Source of the DNA: Paraburkholderia sp. Tr-20389
Lineage (GTDB): Bacteria > Pseudomonadota > Gammaproteobacteria > Burkholderiales > Burkholderiaceae
Direction: 5' to 3'
NCBI RefSeq assembly: GCF_017104565.1
Contig: NZ_JAAGPD010000013.1
Span: 1 to 64,000, forward strand
DNA length: 64,000 nucleotides
The translations under genes and the position numbers were made by a program. Shown piece after piece: positions 26,762-63,605 of this stretch; the first letter of the stretch is position 1, and every line of letters starts with the position of its first letter. The notes beneath the pieces are model-generated. The model did not search any database. It was not told the origin of the DNA and saw only the letters and a list, made by a program, of their open reading frames with translations.

Positions 26762-26812
26762 GTGATGCTCCATTCAAGAAAGGAGCGCCCTTTCGGGACG
26801 CTCCCGAAAGGG
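26762..26812 (-). promoter_or_regulatory. SD-mimic leader element A
   Basis: In leader orientation: CCCTTTCGGGA/TCCCGAAAGGG stem; mimic GGGAGCG (26799-26805); anti-SD CGCTCC (26782-26787); real SD GGAGC (26767-26771). The anti-SD can pair with the mimic or with the SD but not both. Confidence 0.7.
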
Positions 26813-26828
26813 TTAGGAAGTGAATGAT

Positions 26829-27653
26829 TTACAAGGTCAAATTCAGACTTGCCGACCGTGCGTCTTCCAGAGACAGACTTGCAGCTGCAAAAAGGTCAGG
26901 CTGGCGTGTTGCGCGATCAAGCCGGGGCAATGCCTTCGCATAGCGGCTCGGCCCGCTGCCATCGAAACTGTTCGCTCCGGCGGCAGCACAGATGTGAATG
27001 CGACGCGCCGAATTAACGCGTCCAACATGAAGGTGGCAGTTGCGTCTGCGTGCAAGCAAGCCCCACGCTTCCGCCGTCTCCTCCTTCCACTCCGTCGAAC
27101 CCCCGATGAAGATCCCGACTACGGGCGACAGATACGGTGCGACATCGTCGAGTTGCATCCCGTTCTGTACCGCGAGGAGCAGCTGGGCAGGAATGCCTGA
27201 CAGACGCTCCTTCCAACGCAACGAAAAATCGAGCGATGCCAACCCACCCTGAACGATGTCGGGCAAAACAATCCAGTCGGCGCGCTCCCCGAGCTTCTCC
27301 ACAACATCCAGAAAGGCAGGTTCATCGAACGGTTCACCACGCTGGTATGCCGTCCATGCGCCGTTGTCGATCGCATAACGCATCCCTTCCGTACGATGCT
27401 CGCCCTTGGCAGACACCAGGAGGCGCCATCCGGCTTCCGCCAGCGCCTCGAGGTTGCGACGCGTGCCCGTCCGGCTCGCGTACCCAACCATCGGCGCGCG
27501 GTGCATGACCAGGCGCTCCTCGATGTCGTCCGGCTCATCGTCAGCGCTACCGTCGACGCAGTAGTAATCGGCGTAGGCCATGACAGCCTGAGCCCAACCC
27601 TGCCTCTGACCGCTCGCATATGACGCTAGCCAGCTCGGCACCTTCGCGCTCAA
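26829..27653 (-). CDS. TGT/DpdA-like protein
   Basis: 274 residues. IDNGAWTAYQRG, the PDIV of WIVLPDIVQGG, LLAVQNGM, VVGIFIGGSTEWKEET and HVGRVNSARRIHICAAAGANSFDGS (in parts) recall the TIM-barrel of tRNA-guanine transglycosylases and the DpdA family that inserts 7-deazaguanines into DNA. The zinc-binding C-terminus of true TGT is not seen. The TTG start overlaps the upstream stop by 4 bases, with GGGAG ahead. Sits directly upstream of the PAPS-reductase-like gene. Substrate and base are unknown; the assignment is by motif memory. Confidence 0.5.
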   Translation of the reverse strand: MSAKVPSWLASYASGQRQGWAQAVMAYADYYCVDGSADDEPDDIEERLVMHRAPMVGYASRTGTRRNLEALAEAGWRLLVSAKGEHRTEGMRYAIDNGAWTAYQRGEPFDEPAFLDVVEKLGERADWIVLPDIVQGGLASLDFSLRWKERLSGIPAQLLLAVQNGMQLDDVAPYLSPVVGIFIGGSTEWKEETAEAWGLLARRRNCHLHVGRVNSARRIHICAAAGANSFDGSGPSRYAKALPRLDRATRQPDLFAAASLSLEDARSASLNLTL

Positions 27654-27847
27654 ATTGAGTGCTCCCGATCGGGCGTCGGCCTACCTGCAATGACAAGAAA
27701 ATGTTTCTCTCCCGCCAACCGGTTGACCTTGCGCACCCACGGTCGGACTTCATTCGGACACGTTGGCTGCCCTGCGACGTATTGCATCGCCGCGGCTTCG
27801 GTGTCGAACTTCTCAGGTCGGAATCCAACAATGGCTGCTTCAAACAT
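27650..27847 (-). CDS. small hypothetical protein
   Basis: 65 residues, MFEAAIVGFRPEKFDTEAAAMQYVAG, with GTGGAGT before the ATG. Translationally coupled to the TGT/DpdA-like gene (4-base overlap). Contains a pattern like phage-type KFDTEAAA..F/Y motifs but no known function. Preceded by leader element B. Confidence 0.55.
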   Translation of the reverse strand: MFEAAIVGFRPEKFDTEAAAMQYVAGQPTCPNEVRPWVRKVNRLAGEKHFLVIAGRPTPDREHSI

Positions 27848-27905
27848 AGATACTCCACAAAGAGAGATGCGGAGCGACCCTTCCGGGACCGCATTCCCGC
27901 AGGGT
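27848..27905 (-). promoter_or_regulatory. SD-mimic leader element B
   Basis: Core CCCTGCGGGA / TCCCGGAAGGG; mimic ATGCGG (27889-27894); anti-SD CTCCGCA (27868-27874) pairs 7 bp, one G-U, with the SD region TGTGGAG (27853-27859). The CCC begins directly after the U-tract of the terminator at 27906, leaving no room for a promoter. Confidence 0.7.
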
Positions 27906-27948
27906 AAAAAAAAGAAAGCCCCGACGCCTGAAAATCGGTCGCCGGGGC
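27906..27948 (-). terminator. terminator immediately upstream of leader B
   Basis: Leftward strand: GCCCCGGCGAC pairs with GCGTCGGGGC around a 10-base loop and is followed by TTTCTTTTTTTT. It ends the 28380-27964 pair of genes, 16 bases after the 27964 stop, and abuts leader element B. Confidence 0.85.
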
Positions 27949-27963
27949 ATTCGCAAACAGCTA

Positions 27964-28164
27964 TCAGGAACAGGACTTCGGATGACTCGCCGGGAAGACG
28001 GGCACCCTGCCGTCAGGACAGAGCGTGAAGTCTCCAGGCTCGCCTTTGGGCCTCTGAACCACGATCACGGACCGCGTGCTCGTCGCGTGCGCCTGCGGTT
28101 GATTCGTACAGGCACACAACGACGAACTGCCAGCCGCTAACAGCAGAAAAATGAGGTTTTGCAT
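27964..28164 (-). CDS. small lipoprotein
   Basis: 66 residues. Signal MQNLIFLLLAAGSSSLCAC has lipobox LCAC (Cys19). The short mature part contains two more Cys. It could be an entry-exclusion or lysis-type lipoprotein of a mobile element, but there is no direct evidence. Begins 30 bases after the preceding gene's stop, and is followed by a terminator. Confidence 0.55.
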   Translation of the reverse strand: MQNLIFLLLAAGSSSLCACTNQPQAHATSTRSVIVVQRPKGEPGDFTLCPDGRVPVFPASHPKSCS

Positions 28165-28194
28165 GGTTGTCGCTCAAAGATTGAAGGGCCCCGC

Positions 28195-28380
28195 TTACGC
28201 AGAACGTGATTCAGTGGGATCGCTCACATGCACCGTCACCCACCTACCGTCGATCAGGACGTCACGCAGGAGCGTGCCGTTCAGGACGTAGGTGTGATTG
28301 GTGCCGACGCGCGGATTGCAAGGACGAACCGAGAGCGTTGCCGCTTCGGCACGGACGTTGAAACTACGGATCAAAGACAT
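28195..28380 (-). CDS. small hypothetical protein
   Basis: 61 residues, beta-rich (TLSVRPCNPRVGTNHTYVLNG; VLIDGRWVTVHVSD). GAGGAACGCC directly before the ATG serves as SD and is nearly identical to the mimic in leader element C. No family recognised. Confidence 0.5.
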   Translation of the reverse strand: MSLIRSFNVRAEAATLSVRPCNPRVGTNHTYVLNGTLLRDVLIDGRWVTVHVSDPTESRSA

Positions 28381-28440
28381 GGCGTTCCTCGTTGATAAAT
28401 CGGCGAGAAAACGCCCCTGTGGGGGCGTTCCCCACAGGGT
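28381..28440 (-). promoter_or_regulatory. SD-mimic leader element C
   Basis: CCCTGTGGGG / CCCCCACAGGG stem; mimic GGAACGCC (28424-28431); anti-SD GGCGTTTTCTCG (28404-28415) pairs 11 bp with one bulge to the SD region CGAGGAACGCC next to the start codon. Mimic and SD differ by one base over ten (GGGGAACGCC, GAGGAACGCC). Confidence 0.78.
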
Positions 28441-28455
28441 TGAAAGAAAAAACGT

Positions 28456-30777
28456 TCAGGCTGCTAGCGCCTCGACGTCGATAAGTGCATCGGCCTCCCC
28501 GACAAGGTCAGGTGTCTGCGAGATGAAGAACTCCCGCTGATACCCGCCCTGTCGAAGCACCTCGCGCTTCATCCGCATGAACTGCATCTTGCGTTGCGGG
28601 TCGAGCGAGCCGTCAGACTCATCGCTGAAAAGCGTCTGGTACGGTTGCCCGGTGTTCTGGGCAAGGTACAACGCGATACCACGCGTCAGACACTCGTTGA
28701 TCCAGACCTTCTGGCCTCCCGACATCACCGACACCGACTTGGTGCTGTCGGCTTCAGCGTCATGCACGAGAATTTCAAAGCCCTCGCGCATTTCGCCACT
28801 GGCCAGCGCGCGCTGCGTGCGGATCTCCACCGTGAACCGCATCCCATAACAGGCCAGCAACAGCCTGTTGACGGTATCGGTCAATGCGGGTCCCGCGTCG
28901 TCGATGGTCAGGGCAATCACGCCGTCGTTACCCAGCCCTTTCGCCAGCAGCTTCCACTGAGCGATCTCGTCGGACAGACGATCCGCACGCAGTTGCGTAG
29001 CCGAGAAGCGGGCAAGCTCAACGTCCAGACCATTCGATTCAGCCTGCAGAACCGTTTGAGAGCGGATCGATGCTTCGATCCTCCCATCCAGTGCTGCAAC
29101 AGCCTCGCGGTTTGCAACCAGCTTCCGTTCGGTCTCTGCAATTGCAGCCGTCACGTCGACGGCTGCAAGCTGCTTCGATTCCTCGTGGATTCTGGTCATC
29201 TCCGTCGTCATGCGAGCCTTTTCGGACTCGAAACGGGCGGTGCGCGCAGTACTCTCTTCAGCAACCGTCCTGAGTTCCGCATTCGCAGTCTCCAGTCCCG
29301 CTATAGCCGCATCGAGAAGCGGCTTGCTCGCAGCAAGTTCGGTTGCAGCCTGCAAGGTCTTGCGCGCCGCGCTTAAGGCGTTCGTGACAGCAGTCAACTC
29401 GCCCCGCTTCGCGGCAAGTTCGGCAACGACAGGTGCAAGCTCATCCGCCTGCGCCTTCTTCTCGCGATATTTCGTGCGAAGTTCGGACACTGACACGCGT
29501 TGCAAGTCTGCCTGCGATCGCGCCTGTAACGCCTGCGTGAGCAACGGACAGACTGCATGCATTGCGTTGCCGACACAGGGAACCTGATCGACAACGGCGG
29601 CCTGCCGGTTCAACGTTTCCAAGTGAGCGGCTTTCGTCTGGCCTTCCGTCATCAGCCCCGACAGCGCAGCACTGAGCGTAGCGTGTGATACCTGCTTTGC
29701 TTCAAGCTCCGCGATCAGGCGCTGTAGAGGCTCCAGCTTTGCCTCTTCACGGCCGATCACCAGTTCCACCTCGTCACGTTTTGCCGCCGCGCCAAGAATC
29801 GCTTCCTTGCGTGCTAATGTCGCCTGATGCGTCGCGATGGTCCGGTTGATGGCAGTGACGCGTTGCTGACTTCGAACTGATGCAGCCTGCTCGTCGTCAG
29901 ACATAGCCTTCACGGTCCGTACCAGCTCTCCACCACGCACGGCCAACTCACGAAGCCGTGCTTCAGACGTGGCCGACTCACTCGCCTTCGCTGCGAACGT
30001 CGCGCGTTCCTGAGTCAGCTTCGCAGCTTCCTCAAGCATTGCGTCACGTTGCGATCGGGCCTCGCGCAGAGCATCGCCCTGAGCCAGTACCGAGCGCTCC
30101 AATTCCGACTTGCGCTGACGTTTTCCAGCGAGCGCGACGAGTTCCGATTGGATCTCGTCGAGAGCACGACCCAGAATCCTCGCAACGTCGCCCGCTTTCG
30201 CCGACAGCGTCTTAAGGTGTTCGATGCCGAGCATCTCTGCCAGCAACGTCTTGATCTCGCCGGCGCCATACGACGCAAGCGGCCGCCGGTTCTGCGCGGA
30301 AAAGACACTGGTAAAGAACGTCTCCAGCGAGCCATTGATGGCTTCGACACAGCGGTTGTACGTCGCCGCCTTGCCATCCGACACTGTACCGTCAGGCAAC
30401 GTGACCGGTCGCCATGTGCCGTCAGACCCATACCACGCGAGGTAGTACTCCGCCTTCCCGGTCTTGCCAGGTTTCCGGAAAGTGAACGTCGATCGGTAGC
30501 GGATGCCGTCGTGCTCCCACTCGAGTTCCTTCAGCGCGCTGGTGCCACAGATGTGATCCCAGTACGAGAACGCATCCACCGACAGCGTCGACGCATGAGA
30601 AGGCATGATCGGATAAGGATGCAGGTTGTCGATGATGGTCGTCTTCCCCGCTCCATTGGGTCCGACGAGAGCAATGAGACCTTCGGGCAGCGCTTCGAGG
30701 TCAAGGGTGATGCTTTCGCGCTTCATGCCATCGCGAACCCCATAGAAGCCTTCCAGCGTCAGTTTCAGAGGGCGCAT
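28456..30777 (-). CDS. SbcC/Rad50-like ATPase
   Basis: 773 residues. SMC-type ATPase partner of the SbcD-like nuclease upstream. Walker A GPNGAGKTT lies near residues 39-47, long coiled coils fill about 190-640, and the C-terminal half-site has VMSGGQKVWINE (signature) and a Walker B-like SDESDGSLDP. The zinc hook is degenerate: VPCVGNAMHAVCPLL near residue 400 rather than CxxC. AGGAGG precedes the ATG; it overlaps the upstream gene by 13 bases. Shorter than E. coli SbcC (about 1050). Confidence 0.85.
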   Translation of the reverse strand: MRPLKLTLEGFYGVRDGMKRESITLDLEALPEGLIALVGPNGAGKTTIIDNLHPYPIMPSHASTLSVDAFSYWDHICGTSALKELEWEHDGIRYRSTFTFRKPGKTGKAEYYLAWYGSDGTWRPVTLPDGTVSDGKAATYNRCVEAINGSLETFFTSVFSAQNRRPLASYGAGEIKTLLAEMLGIEHLKTLSAKAGDVARILGRALDEIQSELVALAGKRQRKSELERSVLAQGDALREARSQRDAMLEEAAKLTQERATFAAKASESATSEARLRELAVRGGELVRTVKAMSDDEQAASVRSQQRVTAINRTIATHQATLARKEAILGAAAKRDEVELVIGREEAKLEPLQRLIAELEAKQVSHATLSAALSGLMTEGQTKAAHLETLNRQAAVVDQVPCVGNAMHAVCPLLTQALQARSQADLQRVSVSELRTKYREKKAQADELAPVVAELAAKRGELTAVTNALSAARKTLQAATELAASKPLLDAAIAGLETANAELRTVAEESTARTARFESEKARMTTEMTRIHEESKQLAAVDVTAAIAETERKLVANREAVAALDGRIEASIRSQTVLQAESNGLDVELARFSATQLRADRLSDEIAQWKLLAKGLGNDGVIALTIDDAGPALTDTVNRLLLACYGMRFTVEIRTQRALASGEMREGFEILVHDAEADSTKSVSVMSGGQKVWINECLTRGIALYLAQNTGQPYQTLFSDESDGSLDPQRKMQFMRMKREVLRQGGYQREFFISQTPDLVGEADALIDVEALAA

Positions 30778-31298
30778 GATCCAGCCTCCTGCTCTGAGAT
30801 CGCGGCCATCTGTGCGTAGAACGCATCATCGTCATCGTTTGGAAACGGCTCGCGCATCGGATCGACGGCAACCACCTCTGTCGTGGCCGGTACCTGAAGC
30901 GTTCCTTCGACAGCAGCGGCAACCTTGTCGCATACGCGGCTGAATTCGCGTCGCGCGCGAGTCAGCAGCTCGTCCCAATCGCGATAGCCGGTCAGGCTTC
31001 GGATCTCCATCGACGACCACTGCTTTGCGTAACCTTCCCGGTACGACCAGAGAAGGTGTTGCATCTGAACAGTCGGCGTTACGGCAATCTGCCGCGCAGC
31101 ATGAGTTGTTTCCGACAGCACGAGGATCTGGCCAGACTGCGCCATGACGGCTCCGCGTTGCTGCCCAAAGGGTTGATGAAAAATCGCAGCGGTAAAGCCT
31201 GCGTGATCGACGAGCGACCGTTGAATATCGCGCATGTCCTGATCGTCCATGGCGAAAGTGCGGACCCATTCGGAACCGGCAGGGTAAAGGCCAAACAT
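30765..31298 (-). CDS. hypothetical protein between SbcD- and SbcC-like genes
   Basis: 177 residues (MFGLYPAGSEWVRTFAMDDQDMRDIQRSLVDHAGFTAAIF...). The start at 31298 follows ACGGAGTGCAATC and leader element D. Its gene overlaps the SbcC-like gene, so the two products probably act together. Predicted helical, soluble; Arg-rich R-x3-R-R-E-F near residue 118. Unknown function; could be a loader or regulator of the nuclease, by position only. Confidence 0.55.
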   Translation of the reverse strand: MFGLYPAGSEWVRTFAMDDQDMRDIQRSLVDHAGFTAAIFHQPFGQQRGAVMAQSGQILVLSETTHAARQIAVTPTVQMQHLLWSYREGYAKQWSSMEIRSLTGYRDWDELLTRARREFSRVCDKVAAAVEGTLQVPATTEVVAVDPMREPFPNDDDDAFYAQMAAISEQEAGSCAL

Positions 31299-31359
31299 GA
31301 TTGCACTCCGTGAGTGATTGGACGGAGTGCGCCCGGTAGGGATCGCTCCCCGCCAGGGT
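31299..31359 (-). promoter_or_regulatory. SD-mimic leader element D
   Basis: Mimic GGGGAGCG (31344-31351), CCCTACCGGG, then anti-SD GCACTCCGT (31322-31330), which is perfectly complementary over 9 bp to the SD region ACGGAGTGC (31303-31311). Alternative pairing of CGCACTCC with the mimic frees the SD. Confidence 0.75.
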
Positions 31360-31400
31360 AAATGAATTGAACTGCTGAGAAAGGTCAAACAACAACTACG

Positions 31401-31426
31401 TCGATGCGTCTATGACGCGGTGAACC
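31401..31426 (-). promoter_or_regulatory. conserved 5' hairpin element, copy 1
   Basis: Leftward: GGTTCACCGCGTC-ATA-GACGCATCGACG. Stem GCGTC/GACGC. It shares TTCAnnCCGCGTC...GACGCATCGAC with copies at 35159, 55681 and 60408. All four lie a few tens of bases downstream of possible -10 sequences on the leftward strand. Followed by leader D and the genes 30765, 28456. Confidence 0.6.
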
Positions 31427-31515
31427 TTGTTTCGATAGCTGCAGGAGCTATCGGAACAACGCTGTGTCCGAACACGGGAGAGCCTTACTGGCCTCTCCCG
31501 CTCAGCGGCAGCGAG

Positions 31516-32880: not shown

Positions 32881-32893
32881 GTCGACTCCTTGA

Positions 32894-34747: not shown

Positions 34748-34800
34748 GCATAGGTGAGACCTACGCGCCACGTCCCTTCTGGGGACGTGGCGAGCAGGGA
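34748..34800 (-). promoter_or_regulatory. SD-mimic-type leader element F (detached)
   Basis: CCCTGCTC followed by GCCACGTCCC/GGGACGTGGC (34767-34791) and a second stem GCGTAGGT/ACCTATGC (34748-34766). It has the CCC..GGG layout of the family but is followed by a terminator and not directly by a clear gene, so it may be a leftover leader whose gene was lost. Confidence 0.45.
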
Positions 34801-35158
34801 GCGCCCGGAAGCCGGAGCGCTCTGTCAGAGGACGTAAAGTCGTCCTCGCGCGGCATGGTCACGCCGCGCAACAGCCCTTTTCGGAAAATACATTCCGCCG
34901 CAGGAATCACGGATCAGCCAACTTCGATCGTTCTACCCAGATCAGGCTCTGGAGAGAGAACACCCGAAAACCCGGGTTCGAACGATGTACCGGCGCAAAT
35001 GAATGCAGGCCAGGGTACGAGTATCACAGCTGAAATAGGGGAGTCAGTAGCTGGCAGACTCAGCACAAGGAGATTTCCACACCGGGAGCTATCCGGTCGG
35101 AGCATGCTCAGGAGCACGACTTGGAGAAAGTAGATGGACTCCGGGCTTGGAGTCGAGG

Positions 35159-35187
35159 TCGATGCGTCAGAGACGCGGGGTATGGAT
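35159..35187 (-). promoter_or_regulatory. conserved 5' hairpin element, copy 2
   Basis: Leftward: CATACCCCGCGTC-TCT-GACGCATCGACC. Stem GCGTC/GACGC with the same flanks as the other three copies. TGAAACT about 12 bases upstream on this strand could be a -10. Confidence 0.6.
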
Positions 35188-37706: not shown

Positions 37707-37708
37707 CC

Positions 37709-38221: not shown

Positions 38222-38304
38222 TTTCCGGAACGCCTGTCCTCCAATAGATCGCAGTAGGGTTTATACTTAACCCGTCTCCTCTGTGTCTCCTCCGACATGG
38301 ATTC

Positions 38305-38328
38305 AGCCCGCCGAGTGCGGGCTTTTTC
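38305..38328 (+). terminator. terminator of the 35.3-38.2 kb operon
   Basis: AGCCCGC (38305-38311) and GCGGGCT (38317-38323) stem, loop CGAGT, then TTTTCTTTTT. Confidence 0.85.
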
Positions 38329-38346
38329 TTTTTGCGGCTCGCCAAA

Positions 38347-54560: not shown

Positions 54561-55586
54561 TCAGTCGCCCTTGATGATTGCGCCGATCTCGCCGCCCTGC
54601 GCTCGGATAAAGGCGTAGGAGTTGGCTATTTCCGGCGTGCGCTCCAATGCGTCACGCACGAGTAGCGCCGCGAATTCGCGATGCCCCGCTTCGATCATGC
54701 GTTCCGTATAGGTCACGACACGATCGAAGTTCGCTTCCGTTGCGCGCGCAGCCAGAGCGGTTGCGATTGCGTAAAGCGTCGACGGCGTCTGAGGGATCAT
54801 CGCCTTGTCGGGGGTAGCCAGAAGCGCATCGGGGTTCGGCAGTTCGCGGTAGATCTGCAGGAAGCTGACAAGCTCGGTTGCAGCGCCTTCGCCCACCGAT
54901 CCCGCATGCGAGATGTGCTCCAGGTGTTTCGGCACCAGACCCATCGTCTTCGCGACGAAACCCCAGCTGCGGGGACTCGGCGTGTTTTCGATATCGCGTG
55001 ACGTCTTCTGCACCGAGAGCAGGTCCGGACGGAATCGCAGGAACGCGATAAGTTCGGGCGGCACATTGTTTCGCACAGCCCACTTCGTCCAGCCGTCGAT
55101 CGTCGCTTCCAGCTCGACCACCGTTGCGAAACGCGAGATGACAGGGTCAAGAATCCCCGTCACGCCTGCGTTGTCGGTCCGGCGGTTTGTCGCGGCAAGA
55201 AACGTCACGTGCGGCGGCAAGACGTGCTCGCCGATACGGCGGGCAAGCAGCAGTTGCATCTTGGCGGCCTGAACGGCGGGCGAGGCCTGCCCCAGATCGT
55301 CCAGAAACCAGATGAGCGGGCGTCTGGCCTTCATCGCGCGTTCGAGATCGCCGAACGGCAGGAACTTCGCGTTCAAGCCGTCGGGCGCCGGAAACGGCAG
55401 CCCTTTCGAGTCGGTCGGATCTTCAACAACGGGATGGCTGATGAGCAGTTCGTGATCGGTTGCGTGCGCGACCTGTTCGACGATATCGCTCTTGCCGATA
55501 CCCGGTCGACCGGTAATCAGCACCGGCAGGCGCTTCGGGACATACAGCGTGAGCAGTTCGGTCAGTTGTGCGGGCGTAACTTTCAT
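54561..55586 (-). CDS. MoxR-type AAA+ ATPase
   Basis: 341 residues from ATG 55586. Walker A GRPGIGKS at residues 26-33, Walker B PLIWFLDDLGQA near 105, sensor LAATNRRTDNAG near 155. MoxR ATPases act as remodelling chaperones with vWA partners, here the two genes downstream. Preceded by leader element G. Confidence 0.85.
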   Translation of the reverse strand: MKVTPAQLTELLTLYVPKRLPVLITGRPGIGKSDIVEQVAHATDHELLISHPVVEDPTDSKGLPFPAPDGLNAKFLPFGDLERAMKARRPLIWFLDDLGQASPAVQAAKMQLLLARRIGEHVLPPHVTFLAATNRRTDNAGVTGILDPVISRFATVVELEATIDGWTKWAVRNNVPPELIAFLRFRPDLLSVQKTSRDIENTPSPRSWGFVAKTMGLVPKHLEHISHAGSVGEGAATELVSFLQIYRELPNPDALLATPDKAMIPQTPSTLYAIATALAARATEANFDRVVTYTERMIEAGHREFAALLVRDALERTPEIANSYAFIRAQGGEIGAIIKGD

Positions 55587-55653
55587 AATGGCTTTCCAGA
55601 AAAGAAAAAGCCCCGAAAGGACTACGCCCGTAGGGACGTGGTCCCTGAGGGGC
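55587..55653 (-). promoter_or_regulatory. SD-mimic-type leader element G
   Basis: CCCCTCAGGGACCACGTCCCTACGGG core, GGAC/GTCC arm; GGCTTTTTC (55604-55612) can pair with the SD region GGAAAGCC (55590-55598). GCCCC...GGGGC followed by TTTTTCTTTT also reads as a terminator ending at the gene start. Confidence 0.6.
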
Positions 55654-55680: not shown

Positions 55681-55709
55681 GTCGATGCGTCAAAGACGCG
55701 GGTGAAGTC
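55681..55709 (-). promoter_or_regulatory. conserved 5' hairpin element, copy 3
   Basis: Leftward: ACTTCACCCGCGTC-TTT-GACGCATCGACC. TACACT lies 11 bases upstream as a possible -10. Same stem and flanks as the copies at 31401, 35159 and 60408. Confidence 0.65.
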
Positions 55710-55851: not shown

Positions 55852-57183
55852 TCAGACGTGATGGGCTACCGGCGACTGTGCGTAGACCGCCGGATGAATC
55901 CCGGCGGGCATGCGGGCCGCGTGCGTGCGCACGAGCAGCTCGCGAGCCTCACGCGTCCCTGCAGCGTCCCACTCAGACTGGAACGCCTCGCCGAACCCCG
56001 CCAGCGCAAAAATCGCCCGGCGACGGGCAGCAGCGCGCACGCCGAGCAGCTTCACCCCGAATACCTCGCGCACCGTTTGCTTGGAGACGCGATTGCGCTC
56101 ATCAGGACAGTCCAGCAGGTCCAGCAGAAATCGCATATCGCCGCTGTCGATCGCTTCGGAGATTTCGTTACCGAACGCAAACGTCTCGCGACCATGCTCG
56201 AGTTGCGCAATCTGCATTCGCTGGTCGAAGTGACGTTGCGAGATGCGTTTTTCCGCACGCTCCTTGCGCAGCTGCGTGACGGCCGTATCGCGCCGGTGAT
56301 CTGCCATCCTGCTGCGGTAGACCTCCGAGAACTTCGACACGGGTCTGCCAAGCGGCTGCGGGCTCGCGTAACGTTCGGGCAGGCTGTACGGCTCCAACAG
56401 CCCGTGACGCAACAGCAGGTCATCGACCTCGACATACGTCGGCCTGTTCGGCGCCAGTCGCATCACCATCGCGAGAAGTGCAGCGTTCTGCGACGTTATG
56501 CCTCCCTTTTCTCGCGACATGATGCTCGCGAGAACGCGCACCTTGTCAGTAGACATCGCACCGCGCAGTTCCGGTACGGACAGCAGCACCTGGCCCCACG
56601 CCATGTCGGTCGAAAGCTTCTCCGGCAACTCGCGGTATTCAGCGAGCACCGCTTCGGGGACGGGAAAGCCCTCAGCGAGCGCGTACGCAACGTGCACTTC
56701 GTGCCGTCCGTTGCGGTCGCGCGCGCGGCCATATTCCGGACCGGCGTAGCGAAAGCCGAACCGGCGCTCGCATTCGGCCTGAAGCAGGTCATGCAGGCCG
56801 AGATTCCCTCGCCCGTCCGAAGCTGCGTCGATCTGGTCCGACGAGAAGATGAGGCGCGGACTCGACGTGAGGTCGAACGCGTCGTAGAGCAGCTTCCAGT
56901 GCGATCGACGGATCTGCCATGCCGCCTGCATCACGCCGTTCGGCCGGAAGTAAGCGCCATCGATCTCATCGACCATGGACAGGAACACGTCGCGCGCCGT
57001 GCCGGGACGCCGGACAGTCAGGCTGCCGTTGTAGCGGGTGACGTCGACGGGTTGGCCACCGTGCAGGAGCACTATGTCTGAGGATTCAACGGAAGAAAGG
57101 CGGGAATCGGTTTTGAAAACTGCCAGCACTTCGAGCAGCGTACCGAGGAAGAGCTTCTGATCAGCAAAGGAAAGGTGATACAT
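55852..57183 (-). CDS. hypothetical island protein
   Basis: 443 residues from ATG 57183. Opens MYHLSFADQKLFLGTLLEVL. The C-terminal part is basic and helical (SRMADHRRDTAVTQLRKERAEKRI). No catalytic motif recognised. CGGAGCAATC is the ribosome site, 4-13 bases ahead, and pairs with leader element H. Lies between the MoxR unit and small cargo genes. Confidence 0.55.
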   Translation of the reverse strand: MYHLSFADQKLFLGTLLEVLAVFKTDSRLSSVESSDIVLLHGGQPVDVTRYNGSLTVRRPGTARDVFLSMVDEIDGAYFRPNGVMQAAWQIRRSHWKLLYDAFDLTSSPRLIFSSDQIDAASDGRGNLGLHDLLQAECERRFGFRYAGPEYGRARDRNGRHEVHVAYALAEGFPVPEAVLAEYRELPEKLSTDMAWGQVLLSVPELRGAMSTDKVRVLASIMSREKGGITSQNAALLAMVMRLAPNRPTYVEVDDLLLRHGLLEPYSLPERYASPQPLGRPVSKFSEVYRSRMADHRRDTAVTQLRKERAEKRISQRHFDQRMQIAQLEHGRETFAFGNEISEAIDSGDMRFLLDLLDCPDERNRVSKQTVREVFGVKLLGVRAAARRRAIFALAGFGEAFQSEWDAAGTREARELLVRTHAARMPAGIHPAVYAQSPVAHHV

Positions 57184-57250
57184 CGTTGATTGCTCCGGGA
57201 AAGACCTGCGGGCAATCGTTCCCTGTCGGGCCGAATGCCCGCATAGGGAT
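57184..57250 (-). promoter_or_regulatory. SD-mimic leader element H
   Basis: CCCTATGCGGGC / GCCCGACAGGG core; mimic GCGGGCATTCG (57232-57242); anti-SD CGATTGCCCGC, whose GATTGC (57212-57217) pairs with GCAATC of the SD region (57188-57193). Confidence 0.65.
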
Positions 57251-57819: not shown

Positions 57820-57853
57820 CTTTACTCTTTGGACGTGGCCCTAGGCCGCGTCG

Positions 57854-57970: not shown

Positions 57971-57971
57971 T

Positions 57972-58436
57972 TCAATCTCCTTTCATTGCAAGAAACCCGA
58001 CGTACCACAATACTACCCCAACTACGAAGAGACTCGCGGCTCCTGCAATTGTCGGCAGATCGGGCGTCGTCGCTGCGTGCACGAAGCCCACGAACCCGCC
58101 CAGTGACGCGGCAGAGAGCGTATGCAGATAACGCGCATTCTGCTGTCGCTGATCTTTCGTCGGAAACGTGATGGCATTGAAGACGCGCCGGAAGCCCGGT
58201 TGCGGCTCAGATGGTAAGTCCACAGTGTAGGAGCCGTCGCCGGCAACCTGAACGGGCAGGACGAATCCGTCAAAAAACAGTCCGAATGCTGGTGAGCATT
58301 CCGACTCGTCCATCGTCCTCAACATCGCATGCAGACGCGGAGGCAGCGTCACCTTCCCCGTTTCCGGGTCAAGTGTCACGCGCTCCGTGATCGTTGTGCC
58401 GCCCGTGTACTCGACCTTGACCTTCGCCAGTTTCAT
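57972..58436 (-). CDS. hypothetical protein with C-terminal membrane hairpin
   Basis: 154 residues. A soluble beta-rich N-terminal part (KVKVEYTGGTTITERVTLDPETGKVTL) and two C-terminal membrane helices (LSAASLGGFVGFVHA; IAGAASLFVVGVVLWYVGFLA). Overlaps the preceding gene by 4 bases (ATGA) and is followed at once by the 38-residue peptide, so the three act as a unit. Confidence 0.6.
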   Translation of the reverse strand: MKLAKVKVEYTGGTTITERVTLDPETGKVTLPPRLHAMLRTMDESECSPAFGLFFDGFVLPVQVAGDGSYTVDLPSEPQPGFRRVFNAITFPTKDQRQQNARYLHTLSAASLGGFVGFVHAATTPDLPTIAGAASLFVVGVVLWYVGFLAMKGD

Positions 58437-58825
58437 TGACGACCTCTCGAAGAGGTGTCGATGCCACCCGCCAGACGCAGGCCATCGAGAAAGGACTCGT
58501 AACCGCGGGCCGATTCGATCTGCTCAATCGGCACGTAGTTCTCGCCGCCGCCGGTCATGTCACCTCGACCGCGACGTGTGCGGAAGCTGAACGCCACACG
58601 CTGCTGGCACTGATGATCCAGCACGTCGACGAAGAGCGTATCGGTACGCAGTGACACGCGACCCGGCAGATTGCGCCGGGACGGCTGAACGACGATTTCA
58701 TGGGAACGCAGACGCAGATCCTGCGCGACGCGTCGAAGGACGCGGGTTGCCTGCTGCTGGAGCGCCGCTTTCGCGCCCGCACCCGCCGAGCGGCGGTCAG
58801 AGTAAAACAGTTTCGGGAACTTCAT
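58433..58825 (-). CDS. hypothetical protein
   Basis: 130 residues from ATG 58825 (MKFPKLFYSDRRSAGAGAKA). Basic, mixed fold, ending YVPIEQIESARGYESFLDGLRLAGG. The ribosome site CGAGGC (58831-58836) pairs with leader element I. Unknown function. Confidence 0.55.
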   Translation of the reverse strand: MKFPKLFYSDRRSAGAGAKAALQQQATRVLRRVAQDLRLRSHEIVVQPSRRNLPGRVSLRTDTLFVDVLDHQCQQRVAFSFRTRRGRGDMTGGGENYVPIEQIESARGYESFLDGLRLAGGIDTSSRGRQ

Positions 58826-58880
58826 GATTTGCCTCGATGAGACGAGGCGGCTCCCTTGCGGGGGCTGCCCCGCAAGGGAA
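58826..58880 (-). promoter_or_regulatory. SD-mimic leader element I
   Basis: Perfect stem CCCTTGCGGGG / CCCCGCAAGGG; mimic GGGGC (58867-58871); anti-SD GCCTCG (58843-58848) is fully complementary to the SD CGAGGC (58831-58836). Confidence 0.72.
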
Positions 58881-58907
58881 ACGCGCCGGTTAGGGCACGC
58901 AAAAAGA

Positions 58908-59369
58908 TCAGTGGGTAATCCGGTAGCCGGACCCACTGGAAACGAGATAAACGTGCTCGCCGGGGACGAAACGCTGGTCGTCAACCTGCGAGACGACAAC
59001 GGTCTGACCGTTGGCGCGACGCAGGAAAACTTCGACGCCACTGTGACGGGACATAGCCACGCTCACATGTTGCGAGATGAAGCCCGCAGCAGCCCCAGAC
59101 AGCGCGCCCGAGACATACCGGCCTTTCCCGTTCCCGATGACCTGGGAGCCGAGAAACGCGCTTGCCGCCGCACTGACGATCGATGTCAGCCCCGAGGAGT
59201 CGGAACTGGACTCGATCGTGATCTGACGCACGCGCAGGATCGTCGCCTCTTCCATCTGGCCGAGATGCTGCACGTCGTAACGCTGATACGTATTCGGCGA
59301 GCCGAAATCCGCGGTAGCGCACGCTGTCAGAAGTGACAGAAGAACGACGCTGATGATGAGCTTGAACAT
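58908..59369 (-). CDS. glycine-zipper outer-membrane lipoprotein
   Basis: 153 residues. Lipobox LTAC (Cys17) after MFKLIISVVLLSLLTAC. The middle (AAASAFLGSQVIGNGKGRYVSGALSGAAAGF) is a glycine-zipper of the SlyB/Pcp type, and the C-terminus VFLRRANGQTVVVSQVDDQRFVPGEHVYLV matches that family's beta domain. An envelope stress lipoprotein relative carried as cargo. Preceded by leader element J. Confidence 0.75.
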   Translation of the reverse strand: MFKLIISVVLLSLLTACATADFGSPNTYQRYDVQHLGQMEEATILRVRQITIESSSDSSGLTSIVSAAASAFLGSQVIGNGKGRYVSGALSGAAAGFISQHVSVAMSRHSGVEVFLRRANGQTVVVSQVDDQRFVPGEHVYLVSSGSGYRITH

Positions 59370-59430
59370 GGTGGTTGCCTCAACGAATTGATGAGCAACC
59401 GACCCGTCAGGGTGGTTGCCCTGACTGGGA
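59370..59430 (-). promoter_or_regulatory. SD-mimic leader element J
   Basis: CCCAGTCAGGG / CCCTGACGGG core; mimic GGGCAACCACC (59411-59421) is almost identical to the SD region AGGCAACCACC beside the start; anti-SD GGTTGCTC (59393-59400) pairs with either. Confidence 0.78.
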
Positions 59431-59441
59431 AGAAAAGTAGT

Positions 59442-59798
59442 TCAGTGGTCAGCGACGAGGCGAAGACGCGAGCTCGTCCTGTTCGGCACTGCCAGCGCAC
59501 ATGCGCTGATGAGCGCCGCGACCGGTGTGAGAACGAAGACGAACCAGAAACCGACGCCTTGCACGAACGCGCTTCGCGCATAGCCGTCCCCACTGAGGGA
59601 CTCGACCATGAACGAAGCAAACGACAGCTGGTGAGACGCGACCTTTGCGAGATACGCATTGAGGCCGGCAGTACCGGATGTCTGCAGCAGATCCAGTTGA
59701 AACTGCTGTTCGAGCAGGCAGCCATAGATGACCAGTGCGCAGCCAATTGCAGCGAGCGCACCCATGAGAGCGGCTACGACGTTGAAGCGGTTTGACAT
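59442..59798 (-). CDS. membrane protein with two helices
   Basis: 118 residues. Helices at about 8-30 (VVAALMGALAAIGCALVIYG) and 80-105 (GVGFWFVFVLTPVAALISACALAV) flank a periplasmic-type loop of about 50 residues. GGAGTC is the ribosome site. Unknown function; next gene encodes the glycine-zipper lipoprotein. Confidence 0.55.
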   Translation of the reverse strand: MSNRFNVVAALMGALAAIGCALVIYGCLLEQQFQLDLLQTSGTAGLNAYLAKVASHQLSFASFMVESLSGDGYARSAFVQGVGFWFVFVLTPVAALISACALAVPNRTSSRLRLVADH

Positions 59799-59855
59799 TG
59801 CAAGACTCCAGCGAAACGGGAGCCGGGTCCCGTTGGGATGGCTCCCAACGGGATT
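59799..59855 (-). promoter_or_regulatory. SD-mimic leader element K
   Basis: Perfect stem CCCGTTGGGA / TCCCAACGGG; mimic GGGAGCC (59840-59846) and anti-SD GGCTCCC (59818-59824) are fully complementary; the anti-SD can instead pair 6 bp with the SD GGAGTC (59804-59809). Confidence 0.78.
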
Positions 59856-59899
59856 GGATGGGCTTCAGGTGACAGGCACCTGAAGCACGCAGACAGGGA

Positions 59900-60184
59900 T
59901 TACGACGGCAGACGCGTGAGGTAATGCAGATCGACTCGACCGCTCTTGACGAGCTCGCGCTCGGCGTCGAACGGAATGCCGAAGTCGAACTTCACAGTGG
60001 CCGTTCCATCACTCCACAAATACAGAATGGTGGCGTCGAATTGTCTGATCGGGAGCGTTGCGACAGCCTGCGCGGAAACACGCTGCTTTTCGCGAAAGCC
60101 CCACTTCTCAGAGATCCTCGCCGGATCTGCGGAAAGTGCCAAACGGCGGGCCAGCTCTTCCGAAACAATAGCTTTCTGCAGCAT
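59900..60184 (-). CDS. small hypothetical protein
   Basis: 94 residues from ATG 60184. Helical N-terminus (VSEELARRLALSADP), beta-rich rest (ATILYLWSDGTATVKFDFG). AAGGAGCC is the ribosome site. First gene after the 60.41-kb promoter element. No family recognised. Confidence 0.55.
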   Translation of the reverse strand: MLQKAIVSEELARRLALSADPARISEKWGFREKQRVSAQAVATLPIRQFDATILYLWSDGTATVKFDFGIPFDAERELVKSGRVDLHYLTRLPS

Positions 60185-60241
60185 GGTGCGGCTCCTTGAA
60201 AAGGGAGCCGGTCCCAGAGGGAGGTGGCTCCCAGATGGGTA
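60185..60241 (-). promoter_or_regulatory. SD-mimic leader element L
   Basis: CCCATCTGGGAG / CTCCCTCTGGG core; mimic GGGAGCC (60226-60232); anti-SD GGCTCCC (60203-60209); real SD AGGAGCC (60190-60196). Mimic and SD share six bases, so the anti-SD pairs equally with both. Confidence 0.8.
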
Positions 60242-60304
60242 CATGAAATGTGACGAACGCGAAGTCCGTCGTCGAGAGAAAGCGCGATGGGAAAACCCAT
60301 CGGT

Positions 60305-60338
60305 AAAAGAAAAGGGCCGACGCGAACGTCAGCCCTTT
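60305..60338 (-). terminator. terminator in the leader of the 60184 gene
   Basis: Leftward: AAAGGGCTGACG and CGTCGGCCCTTT pair around TTCG (one mismatch), followed by TCTTTTACC. It lies between the promoter element at 60408 and leader element L, so it would attenuate the unit. Confidence 0.75.
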
Positions 60339-60407
60339 CGATAAACCATCCAACGAGTGAATGGGGTGGAGAGAAAAAATCGACGGACCTGGAGAGGTCG
60401 TCTGGAG

Positions 60408-60434
60408 GTCGATGCGCAGTAGCGCAGGGAATGA
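60408..60434 (-). promoter_or_regulatory. conserved 5' hairpin element, copy 4
   Basis: Leftward: ATTCATTCCCTGCGC-TACT-GCGCATCGACC. The stem sequence differs (TGCGC/GCGCA instead of GCGTC/GACGC), but pairing and flanks are kept, which is covariation in favour of an RNA hairpin. TTAGACT upstream is a possible -10. Confidence 0.65.
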
Positions 60435-60523
60435 ATCGAGTCTAACGGCCCTGATATGCGGCGCTGCCGCGGAATCATCCCGTTTTCGACCTGGCTTTCG
60501 TTCGCGGAGTCTTTCCAACGGAC

Positions 60524-60591
60524 AAAAAAATGCCAGCCCGAAGGCTGGCGCGAAAAAGTTCGTAAGTGCTCGAGGGGTGGTCGTTACGAAC
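60524..60591 (-). ncRNA. possible small RNA with tandem terminator hairpins
   Basis: Leftward: GTTCGTAA...TTACGAAC (8-bp stem, 60558-60591) followed by TTTTTCG, then GCCAGCC-TTCG-GGCTGGC (60532-60549) followed by ATTTTTTTG. No leftward gene lies upstream within 150 bases, since the next gene diverges, so the terminators must serve a short transcript. Promoter not identified. Confidence 0.35.
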
Positions 60592-60738
60592 CTGAGAGAG
60601 ACTCCATTCTATGAGTACTCGATCCCTCAACTAGCGCGCAATGGCGACTGATTTGATGTCCATTGACTCCCGGCCGTACGCGCCTTGACTTTCGGCTGTA
60701 GCTGCGAAGATGAATCATCACCTTCACTTCTGCACGCC

Positions 60739-61938: not shown

Positions 61939-62004
61939 AACCCGAGCGGTGCTGGCTGGCCGCTTCTAACCCACTTCTTCCACAACCCCACGAGGAATAG
62001 CTTC

Positions 62005-62409
62005 ATGAGTAATCGAAACGATGGAACAACAGCCGTCATCGGCTTTGTCGTATTGGCCGCTCTCGCAGTTTTGCTCGCACTCTCGCGCGCAATCGGCGCC
62101 AGCTTTTCATCGGTGTGCACTGCGGCCGTCCCGATCATCTTCGCTGCGGTCATCGCGGTTGCTGCGTGGCGCTTTCTCGAGGACTTTGGACCTGCGCTTC
62201 TCGCAGGCTTTGCCGCGATCGCGTGGCCAGCGCTTTGGCCCGTTCTCGACAGCATCGCCAACGGCGGGCGGGACACGGACACCTACTTTCGTCCGATGGA
62301 CGATCCGTTCATCAATAGCGTGTGGCTGAAATGGGGCATCGAAGTCATCCTCGTCGCGTTGATCGTCCTGGCGCTTTATGTGCGCCACCGGCGCCGGCGA
62401 TACTGGTAA
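62005..62409 (+). CDS. membrane protein
   Basis: 134 residues with three to four helices (AVIGFVVLAALAVLLALS; VPIIFAAVIAVAAW; ALLAGFAAIAWPALWPVL; VILVALIVLALYV) and a basic C-terminus. GAGGAATAGCTTC before the ATG. Probably in one unit with the preceding gene (66 bases apart). Unknown role. Confidence 0.55.
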   Translation: MSNRNDGTTAVIGFVVLAALAVLLALSRAIGASFSSVCTAAVPIIFAAVIAVAAWRFLEDFGPALLAGFAAIAWPALWPVLDSIANGGRDTDTYFRPMDDPFINSVWLKWGIEVILVALIVLALYVRHRRRRYW

Positions 62410-62411
62410 GC

Positions 62412-62443
62412 AAAAAAAAACGCCGCCCCTTTCGGGTGCGGCG
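62412..62443 (-). terminator. terminator between convergent genes
   Basis: CGCCGC/GCGGCG outer and CCC/GGG inner stem around TTTC (62421-62443). On the leftward strand TTTTTTTTT follows. It ends the 62458 gene and may act on the rightward side too. Confidence 0.8.
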
Positions 62444-62457
62444 CTGTTCGACAGAAG

Positions 62458-63546
62458 TTAGACCAGTTCGAGAATCAACTGGGCCAGGTCAGTGCAGGAC
62501 GTCTCGCGGACCGCCGTCGTCGACGGTGCGTCTTGGGGAACCGTCCACGTCACCTGCTGGCTCCGCAGTCCGCACAGCTTGTACATCGCGGAACCGCGCG
62601 GCTCGGCCGGCACCTCGCCAAACCGAAAAGTGAACCGCTCAGGCGCGCGTCCGTTGTCGTCTGCGATGCCGAGATAGCCGGCGAGTTCGTCAGCAACACG
62701 GCCGCAATACTCTTCGAGCCCTGCTGGCATGCGGGTGACATCGACAACTGTCTCCGCTGGCAAAGGCCCAGCGTTCACCATCAGCTCCCGATACACCGGA
62801 ATCGCCGCCTTCGCGAATCCGGGCGCTTCCATCTCAAGCGGATACGCAACGTCAGTGATGAAGCTACCGATCGCCGAATACTGCCAGCCAGCGTTTTCCC
62901 AAGCCTGCCCATCGAGGGAGACAAGCCTGTGCTCGTCGTCGATCTTGTAGCACCTCACCGCGGGCATGCGATCCATTACAGACGGTGAGCGGCTCGGTAG
63001 TTTCACGTCATCATCGACAGCGACGCTTGAGCAGTCATTCACTTCGAGCACACGCCAGACGCTTAGCGGCCCGTTCTCGCCGTAGATCACTTCCAGAAGC
63101 GCAGCGTCAGCGAACAGCGACACTCCGGCTTTCCCACTCACGATCTCCTCGACACGATCACCGAGACCGGCCGCGACGAGGCTTTTGCGCACATCGTCGA
63201 GCGAGCCTTCCGGAAGCGACGCGCGGTGGGACTTTGACACGTCCAGGCGGATCGTCCGGTCCGGAAGACGGAATGGTCTGGCCAGCACGGAGCGCCACGT
63301 TCCGATGTAGTTTTCGGGCCGGATGTTGCCAGCGCGGCTTTGCAACATGCCACCCTCGCAGGAGGTCGCGTGTCGGAACACCCGTCGCATCACATCGCGA
63401 TAGCGACCGAATGCGATCGCCGACCAGCGATCGTCGTGCGGATGGCAGTTTTTTTCGTACGTCCGCTCGAACAGCGCGAACATCCACTCGCCGTCGGCCG
63501 TCTGAAATGCGGCTGCCTGCTTGCCCGTCAATACGGTTGAACCCAT
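62458..63546 (-). CDS. hypothetical island protein, DUF932-like
   Basis: 362 residues from ATG 63546 (MGSTVLTGKQAAAFQTADGEW). Soluble; contains FRHATSCEGGMLQSRAGNIRPENYIGTW and a C-terminal region rich in beta structure. The length and general pattern recall DUF932-type phage/plasmid proteins, but that is a weak impression. The ribosome site CGGAGCTT pairs with leader element M. Confidence 0.45.
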   Translation of the reverse strand: MGSTVLTGKQAAAFQTADGEWMFALFERTYEKNCHPHDDRWSAIAFGRYRDVMRRVFRHATSCEGGMLQSRAGNIRPENYIGTWRSVLARPFRLPDRTIRLDVSKSHRASLPEGSLDDVRKSLVAAGLGDRVEEIVSGKAGVSLFADAALLEVIYGENGPLSVWRVLEVNDCSSVAVDDDVKLPSRSPSVMDRMPAVRCYKIDDEHRLVSLDGQAWENAGWQYSAIGSFITDVAYPLEMEAPGFAKAAIPVYRELMVNAGPLPAETVVDVTRMPAGLEEYCGRVADELAGYLGIADDNGRAPERFTFRFGEVPAEPRGSAMYKLCGLRSQQVTWTVPQDAPSTTAVRETSCTDLAQLILELV

Positions 63547-63605
63547 CTGAAGCTCCGATATGAAATGCGGAGCAGCCCCCAACGGGCTGCGCCCGCTGAG
63601 GGAAG
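63547..63605 (-). promoter_or_regulatory. SD-mimic leader element M
   Basis: CCCTCAGCGGGC / GCCCGTTGGGG core; arm GCAGC/GCTGC; anti-SD GCTCCG (63568-63573) is fully complementary to the SD CGGAGC (63552-63557). Two further hairpins with T-runs lie just upstream (63615-63665). Confidence 0.68.

What the first reader, a model, noticed from the sequence alone, without database searches (positions are those of the whole stretch)
26762..63605. Family of twelve leaders built around a Shine-Dalgarno mimic and an anti-Shine-Dalgarno switch strand
Seen directly: leaders A, B, C, D, F, G, H, I, J, K, L and M (26762, 27848, 28381, 31299, 34748, 55587, 57184, 58826, 59370, 59799, 60185, 63547) share CCC-n-GGG-n-CCC-n-GGG. 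In most, an internal segment copies the real SD region of the same gene (for example GGGGAACGCC and GAGGAACGCC in C; GGGCAACCACC and AGGCAACCACC in J; GGGAGCC and AGGAGCC in L). A third strand is complementary to both. The primary sequence differs from gene to gene while the three-way complementarity is kept, which is strong covariation-like evidence for mutually exclusive structures controlling translation. G and F are poorer fits, with no clear SD mimic seen. Inference: a shared trans-factor or condition toggles all these cargo genes. Established context: candidate cis-regulatory RNAs called radC (Proteobacteria, mobile DNA genes) and sbcD (Burkholderia) have been described; this family may be one of them or new.
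Basis: partly seen in the sequence, partly recalled or inferred. Interest (0 to 1): 0.92.

Follow-up and report, generated by a model that had tools for sequence, protein, structure and literature searches.

The report
Plasmid-wide family of RNA translation switches
A family of bacterial plasmids places, just before many of its genes, short RNA leaders that differ in sequence but share one folding rule, under which a strand can either hide the ribosome's landing site or be held away from it, so the plasmid may control many of its genes with one kind of switch that is not in the public RNA library searched.

Summary
All 11 lie on the minus strand directly 5' of a start codon (11 places against 0.2 expected). 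The twelfth, F, is the known sbcD RNA. Three helices are conserved although sequences differ: P1 (5' arm with 3' arm), P2 (loop "SD mimic" with anti-SD strand) and P3 (anti-SD strand with the real SD). P2 and P3 compete for the anti-SD strand, P1 and P2 for the arms. Own strands pair better than swapped ones for all three helices; controls do not. In the 9 Mb genome all 14 model hits at E<=1 lie on one contig, which carries a PRTRC cassette. All 12 of 40 congeneric genomes with PRTRC ParB have at least 4 leader hits; 4 of the other 28 have 1-3. PRTRC elements of two other families, pMOL28 and pHG1 have them too. No Rfam family reaches its gathering score on the leaders; radC does not match. 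Best reading: a two-state translational leader, P1+P3 hiding the SD and P2 exposing it. The trigger is unknown. The structure is well supported computationally; the function is inferred and untested.

The parts
26759..26812 (-). Leader A, before a PAPS-reductase-domain gene (24953-26761 minus)
   Evidence: R2 38.3 bits; Pfam PF01507
27845..27904 (-). Leader B, before a 65-aa ORF (27650-27847 minus)
   Evidence: R2 36.6 bits
28378..28439 (-). Leader C, before a 61-aa ORF (28195-28380 minus)
   Evidence: R2 42.3 bits
31296..31358 (-). Leader D, before a 177-aa gene (30765-31298 minus), which lies just upstream of an SbcC/SMC-like ATPase gene
   Evidence: R2 36.6 bits; neighbours
55584..55652 (-). 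Leader G, before a MoxR-like AAA ATPase gene (54561-55586 minus); weakest member, variant topology
   Evidence: R2 25.7 bits; AAA_5 match
57181..57248 (-). Leader H, before a 443-aa gene (55852-57183 minus)
   Evidence: R2 32.6 bits; leader pattern found at 48 of 52 homologous starts, window included
58823..58878 (-). Leader I, before a 130-aa gene (58433-58825 minus)
   Evidence: R2 42.4 bits
59367..59429 (-). Leader J, before a gene with a weak glycine-zipper match (58908-59369 minus). Read 5'->3' on the minus strand: P1 5' arm 59429-59419, loop/mimic 59418-59413, P1 3' arm 59412-59403, anti-SD 59400-59393, SD region 59381-59370, start codon 59369-59367
   Evidence: R2 45.9 bits, the best in the window; leader pattern at 42 of 52 homologous starts, window included
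59796..59852 (-). Leader K, before a 118-aa gene (59442-59798 minus)
   Evidence: R2 37.4 bits
60182..60239 (-). Leader L, before a 94-aa gene (59900-60184 minus)
   Evidence: R2 39.7 bits
63544..63602 (-). Leader M, before a 362-aa gene (62458-63546 minus)
   Evidence: R2 38.5 bits
   Evidence: RF01757 115.9 bits; distribution
55682..55699 (-). Operon-head hairpin GCGTC-n-GACGC-ATCGA upstream of leader G, with a -10-like TACACT before it
31401..31418 (-). Operon-head hairpin upstream of leader D
35159..35176 (-). Operon-head hairpin upstream of the sbcD RNA

Best explanation
A family of about 55-70-nt two-state translational leaders belonging to PRTRC-bearing plasmids and related elements. 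SHOWN by computation: three helices are conserved while sequence varies. P1 is the 5' arm CCCn(2-7)GGG with the 3' arm CCCn(2-7)GGG. P2 is GGG plus the P1 loop (SD mimic) with the anti-SD strand, its inner part being the third (CCC) with the fourth (GGG) block. P3 is the anti-SD strand with the SD and the bases between SD and start codon. P2 competes with P3 because both use the anti-SD strand (in some, such as M, the two segments overlap only in part), and with P1 because both use the same arms. INFERRED: with P1 formed, the anti-SD strand is free and pairs with the SD (P3), so translation is off; when the 5' arm is held away or opened, the mimic captures the anti-SD strand (P2) and the SD is exposed, so translation is on. 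In 10 of 11 window leaders (not G) the predicted finished fold is P1+P3, while just before the SD is transcribed P1 and P2 lie within about 3 kcal/mol in 7 of 11, so the choice could be tipped during transcription or by a factor acting on the 5' arm. The factor is unknown; since arms and loops differ from gene to gene, a protein reading the shared CCC/GGG hairpin shape is more likely than an antisense RNA or a small ligand. The leaders would make a translational regulon out of accessory operons of the element.
For: Swap test (own strands against strands of other leaders; 2000 shuffles, none as good): 101 non-redundant leaders P1 z -13.3, P2 z -12.6, P3 z -9.0 (n=60); controls mimic:SD z +0.7 and upstream:SD z +1.7. 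Repeat on all 78 model hits (ten further stretches; 68 could be parsed): P1 z -13.1, P2 z -12.7 (P2 is not in the model), P3 z -13.7 (n=59), control z -1.0; without the own contig (n=62) -12.5, -12.3, -13.0, control -1.1. A smaller hand-entered set gave the same picture. Column counts on alignment A2: covariation score above all 500 shuffles and above every slid version for P1, P3 and P2 (A2 was filtered on P1 energy, so P1 there is favoured). Energetics. Own genome: all 14 hits at E<=1 on the PRTRC contig. PRTRC association. Annotated starts: 9 of 9 plus-strand hits on pMOL28 and 7 of 8 on pHG1 end on an annotated start codon (one further pMOL28 hit is on the other strand of a leader). One natural variant: in P. 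sabiae (L003) the leader of gene J is gone, the deletion ends lying in the mimic and SD repeats, so the mimic now stands where the SD stood.
Against: No expression, probing or mutant data. Holding the 5' arm open in silico lowers the cost of opening the SD by 2 kcal/mol or more in only 28 of 101 leaders and raises it in 5 (equal-length control: 9 and 4); a minimum-energy version gives 36 and 11. In the window it helps by less than 2 kcal/mol, or not at all, in B, D, G and H, and in I the control segment lowers the cost more than the 5' arm does. Some leaders fold into P2 as their minimum (e.g. pMOL28 17093 and 29829), so the default state is not uniform. Orthologues are not all covered: the pattern is at 34 of 54 homologous starts for gene I and 54 of 84 for G (outgroups included), and many gene I relatives carry instead one strong hairpin with a U run. 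On A2 the number of pairs changed on both sides does not exceed shuffles for P2 (453 of 500 as high). Leaders were first collected by the CCC/GGG pattern, so the constancy of those blocks is partly ascertainment; RNAalifold alone predicts only 5 pairs of P1. Not every one of the 101 need be a true leader.
Confidence: 0.66

Rival explanations
1. Transcription attenuator: the P2 hairpin plus the following U-rich stretch is an intrinsic terminator and P1 the anti-terminator; SD pairing is secondary.
For: In two genomes of another family of the order (L108, L109) 17 of 21 leaders have 5 or more U in the 8 bases after P2; many gene I relatives have a GC hairpin followed by a U run right before the SD.
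Against: In the window 0 of 11 leaders have such a U tract, and 14 of 85 in the non-redundant set. In L108/L109 the U tract also faces an A-rich SD flank, so P3 may explain it (read). P1 would then allow transcription but hide the SD through P3.
Confidence: 0.13
2. Static structure: P1 is a stabilising or insulating hairpin and P3 a fixed RBS hairpin that sets low translation; there is no switching.
For: P1+P3 is the predicted resting fold of 10 of 11 window leaders, with an SD opening cost of 1.8-11.2 kcal/mol over the 11.
Against: P2 has no role here, yet it is kept as strongly as P1 and P3 (z -12.6 and -12.7), and P1/P2 are near balance before the SD is made in 7 of 11.
Confidence: 0.13
3. 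DNA-level element: the palindromic CCC/GGG block is an operator or cruciform site and RNA pairing is incidental.
For: P1 is close to a perfect palindrome in A, C, I and K; operon heads do carry separate conserved DNA motifs.
Against: P2 and P3 covary with the SD region; arm and loop sequences vary freely; orientation and nearness to the start codon are kept, also inside operons.
Confidence: 0.05
4. Translational coupling: ribosomes ending the upstream gene disturb the P1 5' arm and so switch the next gene on; no trans-factor.
For: Of 291 leaders 261 have an upstream ORF stop within 400 nt, 118 of them 10-59 nt before the 5' arm; in the window 12, 16 and 16 nt for J, A and C.
Against: No sharp preferred distance (quartiles 39, 68, 193 nt); L, D and G have no close upstream gene on the same strand.
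Confidence: 0.15

Closest known systems
radC RNA (Rfam RF01754)
   Different: No match of the leaders to the model (window E<=5; six leaders E<=10); the radC model has 149 positions, the leaders are about 60 nt with hardly any conserved sequence.
sbcD RNA (Rfam RF01757)
   Different: 155 positions, strongly conserved sequence, not directly before a start codon, single copy; not found in G032, G091, G147, G190 and G125, which have 3-11 leader hits each, nor in G051 and G365 with 1 and 3 weak hits.
Translational riboswitch expression platforms with SD, anti-SD and anti-anti-SD strands (recalled; e.g. SAM-II, preQ1)
   Same: Mutually exclusive pairing decides whether the SD is free.
   Different: No conserved aptamer or ligand pocket seen; 14 sequence-unlike copies on the element of the window.
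Metastable mRNA leaders of hok/sok type (recalled)
   Same: Alternative folds of one mRNA hide or expose a start site.
   Different: Short 5' leader only, no antisense RNA looked for or known here, and a set of genes instead of a single toxin gene.

Membership tests
radC RNA RF01754 | Matches the covariance model | tested here: not met
   No radC match up to E 5 in the window or up to E 10 in 59300-60300 and 26700-28500, which hold J, K, L and A, B, C. The genome-wide radC search rang nowhere, controls included, and is no test.
sbcD RNA RF01757 | Matches the covariance model above 40 bits | tested here: met
   For F only (34757-34904 minus, 115.9 bits); for the other 11 not met.
Metabolite riboswitch | Conserved aptamer sequence and structure | tested here: not met
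   Alignment A2 of 49 leaders: outside the CCC/GGG blocks and the SD/start no column reaches 90%; no Rfam riboswitch reaches its gathering score in the window. A SAM-SAH match on leader A has 15.3 bits against a cut-off of 40, E 2.4, chance level.
Metabolite riboswitch | Ligand binding changes the structure | not testable with these tools
   Needs in-line probing or binding assays.
Intrinsic-terminator attenuator | GC hairpin followed directly by a U tract | tested here: not met
   0 of 11 window leaders, 14 of 85 in the non-redundant set; but 17 of 21 in L108/L109.
CsrA/Rsm target leader | GGA in the hairpin loop | tested here: not met
   GGA occurs in GGG+loop of 7 of 11 window leaders (A, B, C, D, G, K, L) and not in H, I, J, M (read).
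Mutually exclusive SD / anti-SD switch (general kind) | Anti-SD strand conserved as complement of both the SD and an upstream mimic | tested here: met
Mutually exclusive SD / anti-SD switch (general kind) | Translation changes with the fold | not testable with these tools
   Needs reporter fusions.

The most novel reading that the evidence does not exclude
A regulatory RNA class defined by a pairing rule rather than a sequence: a PRTRC-bearing element puts a dozen or more sequence-unlike three-strand leaders before its own genes, all obeying one element-borne or host factor that opens or closes P1, so that a whole block of the element can be switched at the level of translation, for example on entry into a new cell.
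Probability: 0.35. Interest if true: 0.87.

Novelty: new variant of a known kind. Interest (0 to 1): 0.72.

Why it matters
PRTRC cassettes sit on large plasmids of Burkholderiales (63 plasmid records with a ParB match, mostly of that order), including the laboratory plasmids pHG1 and pMOL28, and little is written about them: a whole-word search found 10 papers, not all on this cassette judging by title. A translational regulon made of many leaders would be a handle on how such elements control their own genes, and would give a case where evolution keeps a three-strand exchange rule while rewriting the letters, which is useful for RNA-switch discovery methods that depend on conserved sequence.

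Tried and rejected
Pseudoknot reading (P1 plus loop:anti-SD at once): rejected by inspection, since a 10-11-bp P1 with almost no linker to the anti-SD strand leaves no room. A cis competitor for the 5' arm: upstream 40 nt, upstream 40-80 nt and the start of the coding sequence pair with the 5' arm no better than swapped (z +1.4 to +1.7). sbcD RNA as the shared trans-factor: not supported, because it was not found in G032, G091, G147, G190 or G125, which carry 3-11 leader hits each; a diverged copy is not excluded. radC: rejected. Terminator reading: kept as a rival. First covariance model R1 (RNAalifold structure, 5 pairs) was set aside for R2 (P1+P3 written by hand on A2). Rows dropped: 383 raw leader candidates were reduced to 291 by keeping one strand per place and to 101 below 70% identity. 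For A2, 58 of the 101 passed filters on SD, P1 energy, spacer length and source; 10 of these I dropped by eye as odd or G-like, and window leader L was added, giving 49. In one search I had entered 46 of the 78 hits (those to E 0.031 less six) and 45 parsed; on checking I repeated the test on all 78, of which 68 parsed. G365 against the reading: PRTRC ParB present but its 3 weak hits lie on other contigs. G051 has only 1 hit at E<=1. Methylomonas gave 2 weak hits, one at an annotated start, and Rhodanobacter 1, at an annotated start; Aromatoleum and Polaromonas stretches gave none at E<=0.1.

Paper search: Weinberg 2010 (PMC2864571) two passages seen, column headings not; PMC7466150 three passages on PRTRC seen; PMC6436695 passages seen and irrelevant (the term matched a plasmid name). 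Other papers: search listings only. That the family is not in print rests on these searches and on Rfam 15, not on a full literature search.
Full report
WHAT IS THERE. The pattern CCC-n-GGG-n-CCC-n-GGG occurs at 11 places in the window (counting both strands of a place once), each on the minus strand directly 5' of an open frame; simulated sequences of the same di- or trinucleotide make-up give 0.2 on average and 2 at most (60 each). The leaders run from the first CCC to the start codon, 54-69 nt.

THE GENES. A precedes a PAPS-reductase-domain gene, D a small gene just upstream of an SbcC-like ATPase gene, G a MoxR-like ATPase, J a protein with a weak glycine-zipper match; B, C, H, I, K, L and M precede genes without a Pfam match at E<=0.01. 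The window belongs to a 200-kb contig, C6, of a 9-Mb genome, which also carries PRTRC ParB at 68437-70074; the nearest plasmid records are from Paraburkholderia, Caballeronia and Cupriavidus. No leader lies in the block 38-54 kb, which in the related plasmids is the type IV secretion block.

THREE HELICES. I collected leaders by the block pattern, an open frame of at least 45 codons (shorter only at contig ends) and an SD score, without using P2 or P3, from the window and 87 loci: 383 candidates, 291 after choosing one strand per place, 101 below 70% identity. Of 60 Burkholderiaceae loci 59 have at least one of the 291 and 51 at least three; 26 outgroup loci have 2 in all. In each of the 101 I asked whether its own strands pair better than strands swapped between leaders. 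P1: -13.4 against -10.4 kcal/mol, z -13.3. P2: -9.2 against -6.7, z -12.6. P3 (n=60 with a long enough spacer): -10.4 against -7.3, z -9.0. None of 2000 shuffles was as good for any. Controls: mimic with SD z +0.7, 20 nt upstream with SD z +1.7. Window leaders alone: -4.7, -4.9, -4.5. On alignment A2 (49 leaders, filtered on P1 energy among other things) the covariation score exceeds all 500 shuffles for each helix and is the highest among slid versions; the count of pairs with changes on both sides does not exceed shuffles for P2 (453 of 500 as high) and hardly for P1 (111 of 500). RNAalifold alone finds only the inner five pairs of P1. Related sequences can inflate such counts; the further set below speaks against that being the whole story.

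FURTHER SET. Model R2 contains P1 and P3 only. It gave 78 hits at E<=0.5 on ten further stretches, both strands; 68 could be parsed into blocks. P2, which the model does not know, gives z -12.7; P1 -13.1; P3 -13.7 (n=59); control -1.0. Leaving out the own contig (n=62): -12.5, -12.3, -13.0 (P1, P2, P3), control -1.1. The 31 entered by hand from other families or genera give -8.8, -7.1 and -9.3, control -0.1. In L108 and L109 the letters are different (e.g. mimic GGGGACAC, anti-SD GUGUCCC, SD AGGAGACAC) and the rule is the same.

DISTRIBUTION. In the own genome 14 hits at E<=1 all lie on C6: the 11 of the window and three more, at 70108 before PRTRC ParB, 85684 and 88410 (150 of 1254 first-look candidates were scored). 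Among 40 congeneric genomes 16 have hits at E<=0.05. PRTRC ParB is over its cut-off in 12 of 40; all 12 have 4-12 hits. Of the 28 without it, four have hits (G004, G014 and G021 one each, G032 three). By my count of the listing, 78 of the 91 hits in the 12 genomes lie on the ParB contig, 8 more on contigs with the element's sbcD RNA, and 5 elsewhere. A hypergeometric estimate for 12 of 12 among 16 of 40 is about 3e-7 (worked by hand). In the wider family 4 of 41 genomes have hits, each genome's hits on one contig (one of the five in G091 overlaps another on the other strand); G065 has ParB on that contig. As a prediction test I searched the four PRTRC genomes of other families found: G147 10 of 10 and G190 9 of 9 hits on the ParB contig, G125 9 of 11, G051 1 of 1 but weak (E 0.23). 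G365 of another family of the class fails: 3 weak hits, none on the ParB contig. On named plasmids, pMOL28 (L120) has 9 plus-strand hits, all ending on the third base of an annotated start codon (and one hit on the other strand of a leader), and pHG1 (L121) has 7 of 8 so. The model was trained on loci fetched with a protein of these elements, so the link is partly built in; the whole-genome searches were not restricted to the elements.

HOW IT MAY WORK. Predicted folds of 10 of 11 window leaders (not G) are P1+P3 with the SD paired; the cost of opening the SD is 1.8-11.2 kcal/mol over the 11. When the transcript reaches just short of the SD, P1 and P2 differ by about 3 kcal/mol or less in 7 of 11 (D, K, C, B, M, J, A); over 101 leaders P2 is favoured in 60, against 35% with swapped anti-SD strands (300 swapped). 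Keeping the 5' arm unpaired lowers the SD opening cost by more than 3 kcal/mol in A, C, I, J, K and M, though in I the control segment does more; by 2.0 in L; and by less than 2 or not at all in B, D, G, H. Over the 101, 28 fall by at least 2 kcal/mol and 5 rise (control 9 and 4). I therefore favour: P1 leads to P3 and off; a held or opened 5' arm leads to P2 and on. The direction, the signal and the effect on translation are inferred. No cis competitor for the 5' arm was found, and no RNA-binding domain over its cut-off among 50 of 82 predicted window proteins. In P. sabiae the leader of gene J has been deleted; the deletion ends lie in the mimic and the SD, and the mimic now stands at SD position, one natural case in which the mimic plausibly serves as an SD.

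OPERON HEADS. Many operon heads share a -10-like TA-A-T, then GCGTC-n-GACGC-ATCGACC at what would be the 5' end of the mRNA: 184 hits in window and loci, 88 of 291 leaders have such a motif within 120 nt upstream, and 4 of 7 exact matches of the pattern in the own genome are on C6. This suggests a shared transcriptional layer besides the leaders.

KNOWN OR NEW. No leader reaches the gathering score of any Rfam 15 family in the window, in L002, L006 and L007 or in L121, L122, L123 and L125, and radC does not appear even at E<=5 or 10 (leader A has chance-level matches to suhB and SAM-SAH at E 2.4). sbcD RNA is a separate family of the same elements: one copy in 13 of 13 PRTRC-bearing Burkholderiaceae genomes searched and none in the 12 others, five of which carry PRTRC ParB in other families. 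The kind of mechanism, SD hidden or exposed by exchange of strands, is known; the family, its lack of conserved sequence, its copy number and its tie to PRTRC elements appear new as far as Rfam and my paper searches reach.

Noticed in passing
window 34757-34904 minus; G handles: The orphan sbcD RNA occurs once in each of 13 PRTRC-bearing Burkholderiaceae genomes and in none of 12 other genomes searched (five of these carry PRTRC ParB but belong to other families): it looks like a fixed part of the Burkholderiaceae form of this element.
   Followed up: partly
window 31401-31418, 35159-35176, 55682-55699, about 60415 (all minus); many loci: Operon heads share a promoter-like -10, an upstream AAAGC...GCTTT-like stretch and a 5' hairpin GCGTC-n-GACGC-ATCGACC whose stem varies (GCGC/GCGC in some).
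   Followed up: partly
gene I homologues in L035, L037, L041, L042 and others: Instead of the leader they have one GCGAGGTG/CACCTCGC-type hairpin with a U run directly before the SD; terminator-like or a degenerate switch.
   Followed up: no
L003, upstream of 22372 minus: The gene J leader is deleted with the deletion ends in the mimic and SD repeats, leaving the mimic at SD position.
   Followed up: partly
window 38273-38330 plus: Match to the Betaproteobacteria toxic small RNA family (RF02278, 51.8 bits, just above its cut-off of 50).
   Followed up: no
window 17955-24857: Genes for an ImuB/Y-family polymerase-like protein (IMS), a 1051-aa ORF beside it, an ATP-dependent DNA ligase domain and an SRAP protein: a DNA repair block on the element.
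   Followed up: no
window 5676-6694 minus: RES-domain protein next to an Xre/MbcA/ParS antitoxin: a likely RES/Xre toxin-antitoxin pair.
   Followed up: no
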